NCBI GenBank assembly: GCA_904502105.1
Contig: CAJGDF010000114.1
Span: 1 to 6,035, forward strand
DNA from: an uncultured Clostridia bacterium
Lineage (GTDB): Bacteria; Bacillota; Clostridia; Oscillospirales; UBA644
Direction of reading: 5' to 3'
Length of the DNA: 6,035 nt
Shown here: piece by piece, positions 1 to 6,015 of the stretch
Layout: the number at the start of each line of letters is the position of its first letter
Numbering within the stretch: the stretch's first letter is position 1
Notes under the pieces: model-generated
What the model saw: the letters and a program-made list of their open reading frames with translations, nothing else
Database searches by the model: none
Told to the model about the DNA's origin: nothing
Made by a program: the position numbers and the translations under genes

Positions 1-1
1 A

Positions 2-568
2 AAAAATATATATGTTAAAAGCAAATATTTAGCGGAAAAAGTTGTGTTTGATGCAATATCCGACGGATTAAATGCCAAGATATTCCGTTTGGGCAGATTG
101 GTCGGACGTGATTCTGATGGAAAATTCCAGAAAAATCCCGAATCCAATGCTTTTTATTTAACCGTTAAGGGCTTTAAACAAATTGGCGCTATTCCTTTCG
201 ATGTGGAAAATGCAGGTATAGATCTTATGCCGATAGACCGAAGCGCAAAGCAGGTTCTTTTGCTTAAGGATTCTTCCGATACTGTTTTTCATATCATGAA
301 TCCGATCCCTCCTTCTCTCGGAGAGATCATGAATTCGGTAAACCCCAATAACCGAATTGTTAAAATGAAGGAATTTTTTGATATCCTTAAAGAGCAAGCT
401 CCAAATCTTGAAGGACATTTGTTCGGTGTTGTTATGGATGCGGTTCGTTCCAACGCGATCTCAAAACAGATAACCGTAACAAATAACAATACAGTTGATG
501 CTTTAAAGAAGAACGGATATGTCAACGAAGCGGTTGATGTTTCTGTCGTTCTTAAAGAGTTTGATTGA
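2..568 (+). CDS. Thioester reductase domain, C-terminal part (3' end of a probable NRPS or NRPS-like gene, truncated by window edge)
   Basis: The reading frame is open from base 2 to the TGA at 566-568, so the gene starts outside the window; the GTG at 44 is an internal codon. Bases 11-25 read Y-V-K-S-K, the YxxxK catalytic pair of extended short-chain dehydrogenases. It is followed by A-E (32-37) and then G-L-N-A-K-I-F-R-L-G-R-L-V-G, the pattern of the NAD(P)H-binding thioester reductase family (Lys2/carboxylic acid reductase/NRPS terminal R domains). Later I-D-L-M-P-I-D matches the conserved VDxxPVD segment. Such domains reduce a carrier-bound thioester to release an aldehyde, sometimes further to an alcohol. 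About 163 codons follow the catalytic lysine and no other domain follows, so this is the protein's C-terminus. The Rossmann NAD(P)H motif and any A, T or C domains lie upstream and cannot be seen. A free-standing reductase is possible; the downstream ligase, carrier protein and transferase favour an NRPS. Confidence 0.86.
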   Translation, partial: KNIYVKSKYLAEKVVFDAISDGLNAKIFRLGRLVGRDSDGKFQKNPESNAFYLTVKGFKQIGAIPFDVENAGIDLMPIDRSAKQVLLLKDSSDTVFHIMNPIPPSLGEIMNSVNPNNRIVKMKEFFDILKEQAPNLEGHLFGVVMDAVRSNAISKQITVTNNNTVDALKKNGYVNEAVDVSVVLKEFD

Positions 569-573
569 GGAGG
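567..573 (+). promoter_or_regulatory. Ribosome binding site that fixes the histidine kinase start
   Basis: GAGGAGG overlaps the last two bases of the reductase stop codon and sits 8 bases before the ATG at 582. It is a near-perfect Shine-Dalgarno sequence. An upstream in-frame ATG at 519 lacks such a site and would add 21 residues encoded within the reductase gene, so 582 is the better start. The placement suggests translation re-initiation after the reductase gene. Confidence 0.85.
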
Positions 574-581
574 CTGTTTTT

Positions 582-2477
582 ATGGTATCTGATTTTTCAG
601 TTATATTATTTATTGTTACACTTTTTGCTTTTGTTGTATTTTTGATCTGGAGCCGAAAAACTCAAAAGAAACGTGCATTTCTGAACGGGCTTTTTATCGC
701 GCTTGCTTTATCTTATTCAAGCTGGTTAATCCCATTGATAGCATTAAGATTTGTTGATACGTCAAACAGTTCTCTTATGCTTTTGCTGGACTGTGCCATG
801 CAGCCCGGCGGGGCACTGTGCTCTCCGATCTATCTGTGTATTGCTATTTCCTTTGTTAAAGGTTACGATAAAATGCAATCGTGGATGAAGCTGTTTTTTA
901 TTCCTCCGATAATAACTATTATTGTTGCCTGGACTAACGAATTACACCATTTGTATTACGTGGAATTTTCGATCGTCAGAAGTGAAATAGTTTTCGGACC
1001 GTATATATTAATAAGCGGATTCTTTAATTATGTATTTCTTGTTTCCGGTATAGTATACATGCTCTGGTTCGGTATAAAGAACAATACATCTTTATATTGG
1101 AGACAGTGTCTTGTTTTTATTGCCAGTGCGTTATGCCCTCTTTTGGTCAGTGCTGTTGCGACATTCGGCGAAAAGGATCTTCCGATAACCGCCACTCCGT
1201 TAAGCTTCCTTGTAACTGTTGTTCTTAACGGTATTGCGATATTTAAACTGCATATTCTCGATATCAGTCCCATCGCAAAACAGCATATCCTGAATGCTAT
1301 ATCCGACAGTTATCTTGTTTTGAGTGAAACAGGTATAGTTGTACAGTTCAACAACAGATTTCAGGAGCTTTTTGCCAAGGAATACGGTATTACGGAAAAT
1401 ATTCAGCTTGGTGAATGTCTGAAAAACAGCGAGAATTCGCAGAAGGACGTTATATACAGTCTTCTTGCTGCTGTTGATTCAAGCCGACAGGGTGGGACCC
1501 ATGTTTCATATGAACAGTCTGTACTGTTCAATTTAGATAATGCACAAAAAAAATATTATTTTGTTGTGGAAGTTTCGCCTTTGGACCTTTACGGAAAGCT
1601 CACGGGCTTTGTAATACTGTTTAAAGATATTACACAGCTTCGAGACAGTATGAAAAGACTTCAGGCAAACCAGGAAAGAATGATGGAACAGGAACGTTTT
1701 GCTTTCCTTGGTCAGATGATCGGCGGCCTTGCGCATAACCTGAAAACTCCGATCATGAGTATCTCCGGATGTGTTTCCGCTACAGAGGCTCTTGTTGAAG
1801 AGTGTGAAAGCAGTATCGGTGACAGCGATGTTACAGAAAGCGATTTCATGGAAATTTACTCGGAAATGCGCGATTGGCTGTCAAAGGTGAAAGAGTCCAC
1901 CGCATATATGTCCGATATAATTACGGCTATAAAAGGACAGGCTGCGAATGTCAGCACCGATGATAAAATTACTTTCACAATAGACGAAATGATCAAACGA
2001 AGCACTCTGCTTATGAGACATGAGCTTTTAAACAGCGGCTGCAGTTTGAAAATAGACTATAATAAAAATGAAGAGATATCTCTTCGCGGTGATATAAATA
2101 ATCTTGTACAGGTAATAGGAAATCTGCTTAATAATTCGATTTTTGCTCAGAAACAAAAAGGCGGCGGCGAGATTGAACTGAAAGTCTGCCATGATGACGA
2201 GTATTTAAGTATACTTGTTAGTGACAGAGGTGTCGGAATTCCGGAAAATGTTCGGGAAAAGCTTTTTAAATCAATGATCACAAGTAAAGGTGCTCACGGT
2301 ACCGGTTTGGGATTATATATCTCCAATGCTGTTATCAAAGGTAAATTCAACGGCGAGATCTGGGGCGAAAACCGCGAAGGCGGAGGTTGTACTTTTGGTA
2401 TAAAGATACCGCTGGATATAGTTAGTATCCGAACATTAGCAACTGTGAATGGAGTATTAAGTCATGAGGAAAAGTAA
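582..2477 (+). CDS. Sensor histidine kinase: 7TM sensor region, PAS domain, HisKA and HATPase
   Basis: Membrane kinase of 631 residues from the ATG at 582, chosen by the strong ribosome binding site. Seven hydrophobic segments occur at about residues 7-23, 33-55, 64-92, 101-117, 141-163, 176-195 and 204-221, with T-N-E-L-H-H-L at 118-124, typical of the 7TM N-terminal sensor family of histidine kinases. A PAS domain follows (about 240-354), then a short coiled coil and the dimerisation helix with phosphoacceptor H385 in A-H-N-L-K-T-P-I. The ATPase domain has the N box (N514, N518), G1 D-R-G-V-G-I-P (548-554), an F box at F562 and G2 G-T-G-L-G-L (573-578). All ATP-binding elements look intact, so it should be active. 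The residue after the histidine is N rather than the usual E, and the loop between the two dimerisation helices is long. The gene overlaps the response regulator by 14 bases, so that regulator is its likely partner. The ligand is unknown; a membrane-soluble or small diffusible molecule is plausible for a sensor with little extracellular mass. Confidence 0.93.
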   Translation: MVSDFSVILFIVTLFAFVVFLIWSRKTQKKRAFLNGLFIALALSYSSWLIPLIALRFVDTSNSSLMLLLDCAMQPGGALCSPIYLCIAISFVKGYDKMQSWMKLFFIPPIITIIVAWTNELHHLYYVEFSIVRSEIVFGPYILISGFFNYVFLVSGIVYMLWFGIKNNTSLYWRQCLVFIASALCPLLVSAVATFGEKDLPITATPLSFLVTVVLNGIAIFKLHILDISPIAKQHILNAISDSYLVLSETGIVVQFNNRFQELFAKEYGITENIQLGECLKNSENSQKDVIYSLLAAVDSSRQGGTHVSYEQSVLFNLDNAQKKYYFVVEVSPLDLYGKLTGFVILFKDITQLRDSMKRLQANQERMMEQERFAFLGQMIGGLAHNLKTPIMSISGCVSATEALVEECESSIGDSDVTESDFMEIYSEMRDWLSKVKESTAYMSDIITAIKGQAANVSTDDKITFTIDEMIKRSTLLMRHELLNSGCSLKIDYNKNEEISLRGDINNLVQVIGNLLNNSIFAQKQKGGGEIELKVCHDDEYLSILVSDRGVGIPENVREKLFKSMITSKGAHGTGLGLYISNAVIKGKFNGEIWGENREGGGCTFGIKIPLDIVSIRTLATVNGVLSHEEK

Positions 2478-3513
2478 GAAAGTACTTGAAAATAAAATAT
2501 CGATCTTAACACTTGACGACGATCCCATTATAACTTCGACGATTCAGGCATATTTCAAGCGTTCGGGTTATGATGTCGATATTGAAAACGATCCGTTAAA
2601 GGCAATTGAACGAATCAGAGTTTCTTCGTATGATATATTGTTGCTTGACTTTTTGATGAGTCCCATATGCGGCGACCAGGTCGTTGAGCGTGTAAGAGAA
2701 TTTAATAAAGAGATATTTATTGTTTTGCTGACAGGTCATAAAAGCATGGCTCCGCCGGTAAAAACGATACGTCAGCTTGATATTCAGGGCTATTATGAGA
2801 AAAACGAGCGTTTTGACCAGCTGGAACTTCTTGTTGAGTCCTGTGTTAAAAGCATAAAACAAATGCGAATTATAAAAGAATATCAGGAAAGCCTCTCAGA
2901 TGCCTATATGCAGACGGTAGACACACTCAGAACTGTTGTAGAAGCACGAGATAAAGAAACGCAGGGCCATTCCGAAAGAGTTTCTTTCCTTGCTGTTGCT
3001 TTGGCTGAAGAACTTGGCTTGTCCGAAGGCGATGTCGATAATATTCGCATTGCGGGACTTTTTCATGATATCGGCAAGATAGGTGTCAGAGATTCCATTC
3101 TTTTGAAAAACGGTTCTTTGACAGATGAAGAATTCTCCGAAATAAAAAAACATCCTGTTGGCGGGGAGTCTATTATTAAAGAGTTTGCTCTTTTCAAAGA
3201 CCTTCTCCCTATAATAAGACAGCATCATGAAAGAATAGATGGTTCGGGTTATCCCGACAGACTGTCCGGTAACGATATCTGTATCGGAGCTAGGATCATT
3301 GCCGTTGCGGACTCTTTTGATGCTATGATTTCCAACAGAGCATACAGAAAAGGCTTGGGCTTTGAAAAAACTATGTCCGAGATCGCAAGATGCAACGGCG
3401 TTCAGTATGACCCGAAAGTTGTTGATGCATTGAATTCCATTATTGCACGTTTGGGACAGGAAACCTTCATGAAGCTTTTTTGTATGAACTCTGATACGAA
3501 AGGAGTCGAATAA
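2464..3513 (+). CDS. Response regulator with HD-GYP c-di-GMP phosphodiesterase output
   Basis: Cytoplasmic 349-residue protein. The receiver domain (about 11-133) has the acidic pocket D18-D20, phosphoacceptor D62, T90 in L-L-T-G-H and K113 (followed by N, not the usual P). After a helical linker, residues about 152-330 form an HD-GYP domain: G-H-S-E-R-V around H169, the HD pair H201-D202 in H-D-I-G-K-I-G, H230, H254-H255 in H-H-E-R, then D-G-S-G-Y-P (259-264), and D283 in V-A-D-S-F-D-A-M. All the expected metal ligands and the GYP motif are present. The family hydrolyses c-di-GMP to pGpG or GMP, so phosphorylation by the kinase probably changes c-di-GMP levels; there is no DNA-binding domain. 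The ATG at 2464 is preceded by GGAG at 2451-2454 and overlaps the kinase gene by 14 bases, so the two are translationally coupled. Its stop overlaps the ligase start by one base. Confidence 0.94.
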   Translation: MRKSKKVLENKISILTLDDDPIITSTIQAYFKRSGYDVDIENDPLKAIERIRVSSYDILLLDFLMSPICGDQVVERVREFNKEIFIVLLTGHKSMAPPVKTIRQLDIQGYYEKNERFDQLELLVESCVKSIKQMRIIKEYQESLSDAYMQTVDTLRTVVEARDKETQGHSERVSFLAVALAEELGLSEGDVDNIRIAGLFHDIGKIGVRDSILLKNGSLTDEEFSEIKKHPVGGESIIKEFALFKDLLPIIRQHHERIDGSGYPDRLSGNDICIGARIIAVADSFDAMISNRAYRKGLGFEKTMSEIARCNGVQYDPKVVDALNSIIARLGQETFMKLFCMNSDTKGVE

Positions 3514-5153
3514 TGAAAAGATATCCTCTTAATCAAGTGAAATATTACAGCCTTTTCCGTGATATGATAGATGATCTTGCGGTCGGAAACGAATCTAAAA
3601 AGGCTATTTCATGGTTTAACAGAAAGGGCGAAGAGGATGGTGTTACCTGGGGTCAGTTTTACAGTGATATATTGAATCTTCAGGAACGTCTTATCAATCT
3701 TGGATTGGCTGGAAAGCATATTGCTATTCTCAGCGAAAACAGTTATGAATGGCTTCTTACATATTTTTCTGCGGCATATTGCGGTGCTGTTGCTGTTTGT
3801 ATTGATATAGAACAGTCTACCGAAACAATAGAACAAATGCTGGATATGGCAGATGTTGAATGTATTTTTTGTGCTGAAAGATATAGATCTATAAGTGAGG
3901 AATATTTTTCCGGTTCAAAATCTGTTTATTCATTTAACAGAGAAGACAGTGAGCGTTCTATCTACGGACTTATTGCCGAAGGTAAGAATTTGCGTGATTC
4001 AGGTGCGTTAACAGATGTTGCCGTAACTCCCGATATGACCGCATCCATTGTTTTCACATCAGGAACGATGACTTATTCCAAGCCGGTAATGCTTAGTCAG
4101 GAAGCTATTCTTACAAATGCTTCGGATGCTCTCGCAAATGTTGCTATCGGCGATATCGCATTTACCGCACTTCCGTTCTATCATACATACGGCTTGACTT
4201 GCTCGGTTTTATCTATGCTGATAGGTAAAGCTCATCTTTATATCAACGGTAATATAAAAACCGTTATGCGAGATATACAGCTTGCAAATCCGCACACAAT
4301 GCTTACTGTTCCGCTTATGCTTGAAACGATTCACAGCAGCATGTGGGCTTCGGTAGCCGCTGCCGGAAAAACCGACGGCTTGAAGAAATTGATGAAAATT
4401 AAAAAATTCCTTCTTTCTGTCGGCATAAATAAAAAATTCAAATCCATGGAGCTTATACGTGAAAAATGCTTCGGTTCAATTAAACTGATCATTTGCGGCG
4501 GCGCTCATATGAGCCAGAATATCATGGAAGAATTTTATTCTCTCGGTGTTCTGGTCCTCCAGGGCTATGGAATAACCGAATGCGCTCCGCTCGTAAGCGT
4601 TAACAGAAATAAAATGAATAAGTTTGATTCTGTCGGACTTGTTTCCGCTCATACCGAGGTTAAAATCGAGGACGGCGAAATATTGGTCCGCGGAAAGAAC
4701 ATAATGAAGGGCTATTATAAACGCCCGGATCTGACTGAAGATGTCATGACTGACGGCTGGTTCAGAACAGGTGATATAGGTGAACTTGATAAAGACGGAT
4801 TTTTGCGTATAACAGGCAGAAAAAAGAACCTGATCGTTTTCAGAAACGGAAAAAAGGTTTCTCCCGAAAAGCTTGAAGCGAAGATCCAGAAGATCCCGCT
4901 CGTTCAGGATGTTGTTGTTTACGGCGCGGCAAGCGGCGTTTCAACCGATGATGTACAGGTTGCAGCAAGCATCTTCCCGAATAAAGAAACTACCGCAGGT
5001 ATGGACTCATATGAAATATTGGAGGCTCTGCAGGAAGCAATCGGGTTGATAAACGAAGAATTACCGTTGTATCAGCAGGTCCGTATGATCAATATCAGAG
5101 AGCAGGAGTTTTCAAAAACTGCGCTTAAAAAAATAAAACGTTATCTCGTTTGA
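3513..5153 (+). CDS. AMP-forming acyl ligase (fatty acyl-CoA/acyl-ACP synthetase type)
   Basis: A 546-residue member of the ANL adenylating superfamily; it activates a carboxylic acid as the acyl-AMP and passes it to a thiol. Visible motifs are the phosphate-binding loop T-S-G-T (182-185), Y-G-I-T-E (352-356), T-G-D (419-421), I-T-G-R-K-K-N (433-439) with R436, and a C-terminal K-T-A-L-K-K-I-K-R whose K540 aligns with the catalytic lysine. The basic stretch at about 289-318 and the G-Y-G-I-T-E-C-A-P-L block resemble long-chain acyl-CoA synthetases more than amino-acid adenylation domains, so a fatty acid is the likely substrate. The loop is atypical: T187 and P191 stand where the glycines of TSGTTGxPKG normally lie. 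The start overlaps the regulator stop (TAATG) and has AGGAG at 3501-3505. A carrier protein gene follows after 21 bases, suggesting the acyl group goes to that protein rather than to CoA. Substrate length and acceptor are inferred. Confidence 0.9.
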   Translation: MKRYPLNQVKYYSLFRDMIDDLAVGNESKKAISWFNRKGEEDGVTWGQFYSDILNLQERLINLGLAGKHIAILSENSYEWLLTYFSAAYCGAVAVCIDIEQSTETIEQMLDMADVECIFCAERYRSISEEYFSGSKSVYSFNREDSERSIYGLIAEGKNLRDSGALTDVAVTPDMTASIVFTSGTMTYSKPVMLSQEAILTNASDALANVAIGDIAFTALPFYHTYGLTCSVLSMLIGKAHLYINGNIKTVMRDIQLANPHTMLTVPLMLETIHSSMWASVAAAGKTDGLKKLMKIKKFLLSVGINKKFKSMELIREKCFGSIKLIICGGAHMSQNIMEEFYSLGVLVLQGYGITECAPLVSVNRNKMNKFDSVGLVSAHTEVKIEDGEILVRGKNIMKGYYKRPDLTEDVMTDGWFRTGDIGELDKDGFLRITGRKKNLIVFRNGKKVSPEKLEAKIQKIPLVQDVVVYGAASGVSTDDVQVAASIFPNKETTAGMDSYEILEALQEAIGLINEELPLYQQVRMINIREQEFSKTALKKIKRYLV

Positions 5154-5174
5154 TAACATTCAGGAGCTGATTTA

Positions 5175-5417
5175 ATGGAAGAAAAACTTTTTTTATTTAT
5201 AAAAGAGACCGTTGGCAGAGTTACCGGAAAAAAGGGTATCGTTTATGATACTGATTTTGTAAAAGATCTCGGTCTTAACTCTTTTGACGTAATGAATATA
5301 GTTTGTGCTTTTGAGGATCATTTCGACGTTGAAATACCCAGCCGAGATGTCTGGAAGCTGCATACTGTAAAAGATGTAATCGACTATATGATCAAAAACG
5401 GTTATACAAATGTCTGA
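5175..5417 (+). CDS. Free-standing acyl carrier protein
   Basis: An 80-residue protein, the normal length of a discrete acyl or peptidyl carrier protein. S36 in D-L-G-L-N-S-F-D-V is the expected phosphopantetheine attachment serine; the common motif is DSL, so N replaces D and F replaces L. Helix III is followed by H-T-V-K-D-V-I-D-Y, typical of the fourth helix. AGGAG at 5162-5166 precedes the ATG by 8 bases. It lies between the acyl ligase and the phosphopantetheinyl transferase, whose start lies within its last codons. The simplest role is to carry the ligase-activated acyl group to a starter condensation domain of the upstream synthetase. The primary-metabolism carrier protein of fatty acid synthesis is less likely because no fab genes are nearby and the sequence departs from the DSL consensus. 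Confidence 0.92.
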   Translation: MEEKLFLFIKETVGRVTGKKGIVYDTDFVKDLGLNSFDVMNIVCAFEDHFDVEIPSRDVWKLHTVKDVIDYMIKNGYTNV

Positions 5418-6015
5418 TAAAGACAATTCCGTTTTACGGTTGTACGTTTATTTAAAGCCTTCTCAAACAACTGAAGAGCTGATCAGAAAATCAGTTGAGA
5501 GTTTTGTGTCGCAAACAGGTACAGCTTTTGATACCAATTCGGTAAATATATTGAAAACGGCAAAAGGTAAGCCTTATCTTGTCGGCACCGACAGTATATA
5601 TTTATCTGTAACTCACAGCGGCGACTTCTGTATCATTGCAGTTTCTTTTTTTGAAACAGGTATCGATCTTCAGTTTCATGAACGCTTGAAAACCGAAACA
5701 GAGCAACAGGCTGCCGAAAGATATTTGAAACTTTCAAAACGTTATTTTCATAACGATGAATATGAATATGTAAAAACAGATCCGCTTGTTTGCTTTTTTG
5801 ATGTTTGGACGGCAAAGGAAAGTTATGTGAAGTACAAAGGCAATGGTATAGACGATTCTTTCGGAACTTACAGCGTTTTACCCGAAAATAATCAGGCAAG
5901 AACGTTGTCCTGGAAAAAATCCGATGCTTATTTCCGGATAGTTCCTTTTGTTGAAGGATATACTTTATGCACTTGTTCGTCTGAACAGACGTCCGTTAAA
6001 CTTATTTATAATTAG
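5410..6015 (+). CDS. Sfp-type 4'-phosphopantetheinyl transferase
   Basis: A 201-residue protein, slightly short for the Sfp type (about 220-240) but much longer than AcpS. It transfers phosphopantetheine from CoA to the serine of carrier proteins. Visible motifs are G-K-P-Y-L (53-57), S-V-T-H-S-G-D (66-72) with H69, G-I-D-L-Q (84-88) and W-T-A-K-E-S-Y-V-K (133-141). D86 and E137 are the expected magnesium ligands and K136/K141 the conserved lysines. The second acid of the DxE motif is Q88 here. The start overlaps the end of the carrier protein gene by 8 bases (ATGTCTGA) and has no clear ribosome binding site, so translation probably depends on the upstream gene. The context implies it activates the adjacent carrier protein and the carrier domains of the synthetase. 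Only 20 bases follow the stop. Confidence 0.92.
   Translation: MSDKDNSVLRLYVYLKPSQTTEELIRKSVESFVSQTGTAFDTNSVNILKTAKGKPYLVGTDSIYLSVTHSGDFCIIAVSFFETGIDLQFHERLKTETEQQAAERYLKLSKRYFHNDEYEYVKTDPLVCFFDVWTAKESYVKYKGNGIDDSFGTYSVLPENNQARTLSWKKSDAYFRIVPFVEGYTLCTCSSEQTSVKLIYN

What the first reader, a model, noticed from the sequence alone, without database searches (positions are those of the whole stretch)
1..6015. Likely cluster for an N-acylated, reductively released peptide (aldehyde-type) product
Seen: a terminal thioester reductase end, an acyl ligase, a discrete carrier protein and an Sfp-type transferase in one co-directional run. Known: gut Clostridia carry NRPS clusters with terminal reductases that give peptide aldehydes and pyrazinones, some of which are protease inhibitors. 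Inference: the ligase and carrier protein supply a fatty acyl starter and the reductase releases an aldehyde, giving a lipopeptide aldehyde.
Basis: partly seen in the sequence, partly recalled or inferred. Interest (0 to 1): 0.75.

Follow-up and report, generated by a model that had tools for sequence, protein, structure and literature searches.

The report
Acyl-dipeptide-aldehyde operon with built-in sensor
This DNA, likely from a gut Clostridia bacterium, holds the tail of an operon predicted to make a fat-capped dipeptide aldehyde, a kind of molecule known to inhibit proteases; inside it sit a membrane sensor and a predicted cyclic-di-GMP-degrading partner, and relatives of that sensor often lie next to peptide-making genes, so the product is possibly also a bacterial signal.

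Summary
In detail: six co-directional, nearly touching genes. They are the end of an NRPS thioester-reductase domain (2-568), a 7TM histidine kinase (582-2477), an HD-GYP response regulator (2464-3513), an acyl ligase (3513-5153), a carrier protein (5175-5417) and an Sfp-type PPTase (5410-6015). The finding left out the two signalling genes.

Eleven orthologous loci keep the order NRPS, kinase, regulator, ligase, carrier. In the 8 with a complete upstream gene it is a two-module NRPS of 2442-2651 residues (C-A-T-C-A-T-R in the 3 scanned with Pfam), with a distinct starter-like first C domain. No product was measured; acyl chain and residues are unknown. Ruminopeptin and BGC0001686 products are of this kind, so the chemistry is not new.

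The less expected part is the kinase. It is single-copy in 11 of 11 cluster genomes. In a sample of 391 genomes an NRPS lies directly upstream of 17 of 29 full-length kinase relatives (14 of the 19 closest); 7 have none. These NRPSs end in R, AAR-like or TE domains but share one first-C clade where tested. Not excluded: acyl-peptide aldehydes are signals read by a co-operonic receptor that controls c-di-GMP.

The parts
2..568 (+). 3' end of an NRPS gene: last 188 residues of the terminal thioester-reductase (R) domain, including the YxxxK motif
   Evidence: 74% identical over 188 residues to the end of the 2483-residue NRPS of L012; PDB matches 6vtj and AusA reductase 4f6c
582..2477 (+). Histidine kinase: seven-helix membrane N-terminus, PAS-like domain, DHp with HNLKTP box, ATPase domain
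   Evidence: AlphaFold2 model, mean pLDDT 74.5, pTM 0.40; RBS-like GAGGAGG upstream
2464..3513 (+). Response regulator: receiver plus HD-GYP domain, predicted c-di-GMP phosphodiesterase
   Evidence: receiver aspartate, HD and HHExxDGxGYP motifs kept in 12 of 12 aligned regulators
3513..5153 (+). AMP-forming acyl ligase, predicted to load an acyl group on the discrete carrier protein
   Evidence: orthologues 46-83% identical in four named loci
5175..5417 (+). Discrete acyl carrier protein (80 aa)
   Evidence: Ser36 invariant in 5 of 5
5410..6015 (+). Sfp/AusB-type 4'-phosphopantetheinyl transferase (201 aa)

Best explanation
The window holds the end of an NRPS reductase domain, a 7TM histidine kinase, an HD-GYP response regulator, an acyl ligase, a carrier protein and a phosphopantetheinyl transferase in one operon-like run, predicted to make an N-acyl dipeptide aldehyde and likely to lower cyclic-di-GMP when the kinase meets its still unknown signal. 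Shown by sequence: the six genes, their order, their motifs, and recurrence of the core order in 11 of 11 orthologous loci. Inferred: the PPTase activates the carrier sites; the ligase charges the discrete carrier with an acyl group; the first C domain passes it to amino acid 1; the second module adds amino acid 2; the R domain reduces the thioester with NAD(P)H to a free aldehyde, which N-acylation keeps from closing to a pyrazinone. Inferred: the kinase phosphorylates the HD-GYP regulator, which hydrolyses c-di-GMP, in some relatives opposing a GGDEF enzyme encoded just upstream of the NRPS. The product, or something it changes at the membrane, is the most economical candidate for the kinase's signal; this is untested.
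For: Domains. Complete NRPS in 8 of 11 orthologous loci, C-A-T-C-A-T-R in 3 of 3 scanned. First C domains of 20 NRPSs in one clade, 100/100, apart from 16 second C domains after two mislabelled rows are put right. Core gene order in 11 of 11 loci. Kinase single-copy and in the locus in 11 of 11 cluster genomes, 0 of 5 other genomes at E<=1e-40. HD-GYP motifs kept in 12 of 12. NRPS directly upstream of 17 of 29 full-length kinase relatives found in 391 genomes. GGDEF protein with active-site and I-site motifs directly upstream of the NRPS in 4 of 8 loci.
Against: The window's own NRPS modules are not in view. No product, acyl chain or residue was determined. Six of the 17 NRPS-linked kinases have no HD-GYP regulator next door (L063, L068, L071, L081, L087, L089), 7 of 29 kinase relatives have no NRPS, and GGDEF is missing in 4 of 8 loci, so the c-di-GMP link is not universal outside the ligase-bearing clade. 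The regulator has no DNA-binding domain, so direct control of the operon is not explained. Nothing shows that the kinase binds the product.
Confidence: 0.78

Rival explanations
1. The two-component system is a passenger regulator: it senses a cue unrelated to the product (envelope state, bile, peptides) and stays with the NRPS only because operons are inherited together.
For: Linked genes share trees without any functional link; the kinase family also occurs without NRPS (7 of 29), and the one regulator scanned there is receiver-HTH (L083). HisKA_7TM is a broad family.
Against: The same kinase family accompanies NRPSs of quite different build (two-module R, one-module R, AAR-like, TE), 14 of the 19 closest having an NRPS directly upstream and none of the 19 a plainly unrelated neighbour in view. 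The kinase tree sorts by NRPS type: 10 changes against 24.3 for shuffled labels, which co-inheritance can also give.
Confidence: 0.5
2. The ligase and discrete carrier do not feed the NRPS; they belong to another acyl pathway and the NRPS takes acyl-CoA or housekeeping acyl-ACP.
For: Ligase-ACP pairs occur without an NRPS (L045, L046). Seven two-module NRPSs with the same first-C type have no match to the window ligase gene in view (L062-L066, L069, L081). BGC0001686 expressed in E. coli gives N-octanoyl-Met-Phe-H (PMC8518294, passages).
Against: All 11 ligase orthologues at 557 bits or more lie in the NRPS operon, a threshold set after seeing the gap to 462 bits; the kinases of these loci form one clade (12 rows, 100/100), so ligase and carrier entered once and stayed.
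Confidence: 0.12
3. The upstream gene is a carboxylic acid reductase or stand-alone reductase and there is no peptide.
For: The window shows only the reductase end; a related ligase is fused to a reductase-like region in L047 (990 aa).
Against: In all 8 relatives with the complete gene it is a two-module NRPS; here ligase and reductase are separate genes with the kinase and regulator between them.
Confidence: 0.03

Closest known systems
Ruminopeptin (rup) pathway of Ruminococcus bromii (Schneider and Balskus 2018, not held; seen through passages in PMC12327764 and PMC8518294)
   Same: NRPS of gut Clostridia; product an N-acylated dipeptide aldehyde (Leu-Glu) reported to inhibit proteases
   Different: Sequences not compared here. 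Whether rup carries a kinase and HD-GYP gene could not be checked.
BGC0001686, a Clostridium NRPS cluster giving N-octanoyl-Met-Phe-H in E. coli (PMC8518294, passages)
   Same: N-acyl dipeptide aldehyde released from a gut bacterial NRPS; protease and proteasome inhibition reported
   Different: Sequence and gene content not compared here; our relatives carry a dedicated ligase, carrier and a two-component pair.
AusAB, aureusimine/phevalin NRPS and PPTase of Staphylococcus aureus (PMC12153313, passages)
   Same: Terminal R domain and dedicated PPTase; the window's R end and PPTase match the AusA and AusB models
   Different: AusA is A-T-C-A-T-R: no first C, free amine, pyrazinone. Relatives here start with C and carry ligase, carrier, kinase and regulator.
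HisKA_7TM histidine kinases with receiver plus HD-GYP regulators (Pfam PF16927, PF13487; nearest NCBIfam model NosR family, below cut-off)
   Same: Domains and catalytic motifs
   Different: Here the pair is set between an NRPS gene and its acyl-supply genes, and its kinase family is found beside NRPSs.

Membership tests
N-acyl dipeptide aldehyde NRPS clusters (ruminopeptin / BGC0001686 kind) | Two-module NRPS ending in a reductase domain | tested here: inconclusive
   Window holds only the R end; met in 8 of 8 orthologous loci with a complete gene, 3 of them Pfam-scanned
N-acyl dipeptide aldehyde NRPS clusters (ruminopeptin / BGC0001686 kind) | First domain is a starter-type C domain | tested here: inconclusive
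   Not in the window. In relatives first C domains form their own clade; in the PDB the L012 first C scores highest with 9rde (bacitracin synthase 3, part of the domain) and next, over the whole domain, with 7c1h (recalled as a starter C), the second C with tyrocidine synthetase 3. No labelled set of starter C domains was available.
N-acyl dipeptide aldehyde NRPS clusters (ruminopeptin / BGC0001686 kind) | Product is an N-acyl dipeptide aldehyde that inhibits proteases | not testable with these tools
   Needs expression and mass spectrometry
Aureusimine-type (AusA) NRPS | A-T-C-A-T-R without a first C domain | tested here: not met
   Relatives start with C; the window itself does not show the start
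Carboxylic acid reductase | Adenylation, carrier and reductase domains in one protein | tested here: not met
   Ligase, carrier and reductase are on separate genes
7TM histidine kinase with HD-GYP response regulator | HisKA_7TM and HATPase_c with an H box; receiver aspartate; HD and HHExxDGxGYP | tested here: met
Synthase-receptor (quorum-sensing-like) system | Receptor binds the product of the linked synthase | not testable with these tools
   Only linkage and co-segregation are shown

The most novel reading that the evidence does not exclude
Gut Clostridia use N-acyl (di)peptide aldehydes as signals: the reductive NRPS is the synthase, the co-operonic 7TM histidine kinase is its receptor, and the HD-GYP regulator turns the signal into a fall in c-di-GMP. 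It would be one branch of a wider class in which this kinase family is paired with starter-C NRPSs that end in R, AAR-like or TE domains, in one case with a PilZ domain fused to the NRPS.
Probability: 0.25. Interest if true: 0.82.

Novelty: new variant of a known kind. Interest (0 to 1): 0.55.

Why it matters
What gut N-acyl dipeptide aldehydes do for their makers is open; the passages I saw describe them as inhibitors of proteases. A membrane kinase and a predicted c-di-GMP phosphodiesterase set inside the operon in all 11 orthologous loci found, and kin of that kinase beside other NRPSs, give a concrete alternative: the producer itself reads, or is switched by, the pathway. One purified kinase and one synthetic aldehyde would test it. 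The kinase is also a handle for finding such NRPSs with unusual release domains.

Tried and rejected
Own genome of the window: none held, so the NRPS modules were read only in relatives. Substrate prediction: A-domain codes were read by motif anchors (the mapping to GrsA-PheA positions is recalled, not from a call) in 129 NRPSs, 120 listed homologues plus 9 from loci; 19 of 258 domains failed one anchor and single positions were missed in others. A1 is nearly invariant, A2 varies; I assign no amino acids. Carboxylic acid reductase reading: rejected, see rivals. Fold search of the kinase model: not run, since pTM was 0.40 and the common kinase core would dominate. Ligase against the PDB: only general acyl-CoA ligases, best 9.5e-36, no help on the acyl chain.

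Literature for an earlier report of the kinase/HD-GYP link: searches returned 19, 9, 29 (15 listed), 0 and 1 papers; by title and abstract start none describes it; none of them was opened for this. Guo 2017 is not held; Schneider and Balskus 2018 is not among the two papers holding the word ruminopeptin. A mention there is not excluded.

Kinase relatives: one search listed 62 matches in 49 of 391 genomes. I examined the neighbourhoods of all 29 full-length matches and of 3 partial ones (L090-L092, not counted); 30 partial matches, mostly of the kinase core, were not examined. In that call only the top three candidates per genome were scored, so counts are lower bounds. In one search two rows (L044, L062) were labelled first C but are second C domains, because my motif missed their first A domain; one search shows that their true first C domains match the first-C group best. 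L071, L079 and the cut L038 were not in that tree. The reciprocal test (all NRPSs with this first-C type, how many have the kinase) was not run: 1970 of 2000 genomes were used.
Full report
What is there. The window carries six genes on the + strand with gaps of 13, -14, -1, 21 and -8 bases: the last 188 residues of an NRPS reductase domain (2-568), a histidine kinase (582-2477), a response regulator (2464-3513), an acyl ligase (3513-5153), a carrier protein (5175-5417) and a PPTase (5410-6015). Pfam and NCBIfam agree on the kind of each. The reductase end has YxxxK at its first codons and is 74% identical over 188 residues to the end of a 2483-residue NRPS in an Oscillospiraceae MAG (L012).

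The missing upstream gene in relatives. A scan of GTDB genome contigs with the window ligase gave four loci in Clostridia MAGs, two of them titled from goat and cattle rectum. Profile searches of 20, 391, 392, 394, 63 and 299 genomes (some genomes were in more than one draw, and in the larger draws only the top three or four candidates per genome were scored) brought the total to 11 genomes whose ligase scores 557 bits or more. The next ones seen score 462 or less (searches used a stricter cut-off); three were examined and have a ligase-ACP pair (L045, L046) or a ligase-reductase fusion (L047) without this NRPS. In all 11 the order is NRPS (or its reductase end at a contig edge), kinase, regulator, ligase, carrier. 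A PPTase match is in 8 of 11, in L044 beyond the NRPS; none was found in L004, L042 and L043. In the 8 with a complete NRPS gene it is 2442-2651 residues; three scanned with Pfam are C-A-T-C-A-T-R, the other five show similar length, two A-domain motifs and matches to the same C/A and R parts. L002, L038 and L039 are cut by contig ends.

Acylation. The first C domains of 20 NRPSs (7 ligase-bearing, 13 others) form one clade, 100/100, apart from 16 second C domains once two mislabelled rows are put right. In the PDB the first C of L012 scores highest with bacitracin synthase 3 (9rde, part of the domain) and next, over the whole domain, with 7c1h and 7c1k (recalled as starter C domains); the second C scores highest with tyrocidine synthetase 3. 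With the ligase and carrier in the operon, an N-acyl dipeptide aldehyde is the straightforward product. N-acylation would prevent the pyrazinone route of AusA, which lacks a first C domain.

Residues. Codes read by motif in 129 NRPSs (10 first and 9 second A domains failed an anchor) show a nearly invariant first pocket (D-A-L, mostly S or A, I/V/L, C, Q, V) and a variable second pocket (DCVEVLMVF in 48; also DCVELVMVY, DSG-type and Q-type). So residue 1 is probably fixed and the aldehyde residue varies between clusters. I name no amino acids. The NRPS search gave 3078 proteins at E<=1e-100 among 7979 scored candidates, 120 of them listed.

The two-component system. The kinase has seven long N-terminal helices, a PAS-like domain and a DHp/ATPase core. 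The regulator keeps the receiver aspartate, HD and HHExxDGxGYP motifs in 12 of 12 proteins, so c-di-GMP hydrolysis is predicted. At E<=1e-40 the kinase occurs once per genome in 11 of 11 cluster genomes, in the locus each time, and in 0 of 5 other genomes.

A second, kinase-led sample. Searching 391 genomes of the class with the kinase profile gave 62 matches in 49 genomes; 29 are full length and all 29 neighbourhoods were examined (one of the 29 is L003's own genome). In 17 an NRPS gene lies directly upstream on the same strand. In 2 (L067, L080) the contig ends within a domain homologous to the tails of such NRPSs. In 3 (L074-L076) the neighbour is a 543-residue protein homologous (279 bits, profile of the three) to the N-terminal part of the L077 NRPS, in which Pfam finds PilZ. 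In 7 there is no NRPS; the one regulator scanned there is receiver-HTH (L083). Among the 19 scoring 395 bits or more the split is 14, 2, 3 and 0. Against a uniform picture: the HD-GYP-type regulator follows the kinase in 11 of the 17 NRPS-linked cases and is not in view next to it in L063, L068, L071, L081, L087 and L089.

Release domains and trees. The 17 NRPSs end in an SDR-type R domain (by Pfam in L012 and L062, by match to the R part in L063-L066, L069, L081, L087 and L089), an AAR-like reductase (L068, L071, L072; the same domain in L067 matches PDB 9e4s, 'amino acid adenylation domain protein', at 8.7e-90, and weakly PigE), a TE domain (L070, L073, L077), or no visible release domain (L079). 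The kinase tree (40 rows) sorts by NRPS type: ligase-bearing loci are one clade (12 rows, 100/100) and all labels together need 10 changes against 24.3 for shuffled labels. Co-inheritance of linked genes can explain that; it does not by itself explain why this kinase family keeps company with NRPSs of several kinds.

The c-di-GMP theme. GGDEF proteins with GGDEF and RxxD motifs lie directly upstream of the NRPS in L011, L012, L013 and L042, and none was found in L040, L041, L043 or L044, where 1.2-3.4 kb upstream is in view. BTAD-type activators lie upstream in L011 and L012 and downstream in L042. In L012/L003 the run is BTAD, GGDEF, NRPS, kinase, HD-GYP, ligase, carrier, PPTase. In L077 a PilZ domain is fused to the NRPS.

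Interpretation. Shown: gene set, motifs, order, recurrence, linkage. Inferred: product, acyl chain, c-di-GMP hydrolysis, ligand. The chemistry belongs to a known kind (ruminopeptin, BGC0001686; passages in PMC12327764 and PMC8518294). The embedded signalling pair makes it a variant; I found no report of the link in the held library, but the founding papers are not held. The signal-and-receptor reading is testable but rests on linkage only, hence 0.25.

Noticed in passing
L067:2-1198, L080:2-1138 and C-termini of the NRPSs in L068, L071, L072: One-module NRPSs (C-A-T) with a ~380-residue C-terminal domain that Pfam does not name; it matches PDB 9e4s/9e4x ('Amino acid adenylation domain protein', 8.7e-90) and weakly PigE, so it is probably an aldehyde-forming reductase of another fold.
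   Followed up: partly
L077:10701-16337: An NRPS (C-A-T-TE) with an N-terminal region that carries a PilZ domain, next to a 7TM kinase and an HD-GYP regulator; homologues of that region stand alone beside the same kinase family in L074-L076.
   Followed up: partly
L003:12751-13179, L002:7016-7423, L038:8166-8582: A similar-looking ~140-residue protein of no Pfam family follows the PPTase in three relatives; the window ends 20 bases after its PPTase, so its presence there is unknown.
   Followed up: partly
L038:9704-11382: The ligase gene of this genome is split into two ORFs; assembly error or decay, not examined.
   Followed up: no
L047:4529-7501: A 990-residue fusion of a related acyl ligase with a reductase-like region (carboxylic-acid-reductase-like) in another Clostridia genome.
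   Followed up: no
L078, L082-L086: A kinase branch of the same family without NRPS, next to short regulators (receiver-HTH in L083, the one scanned).
   Followed up: partly
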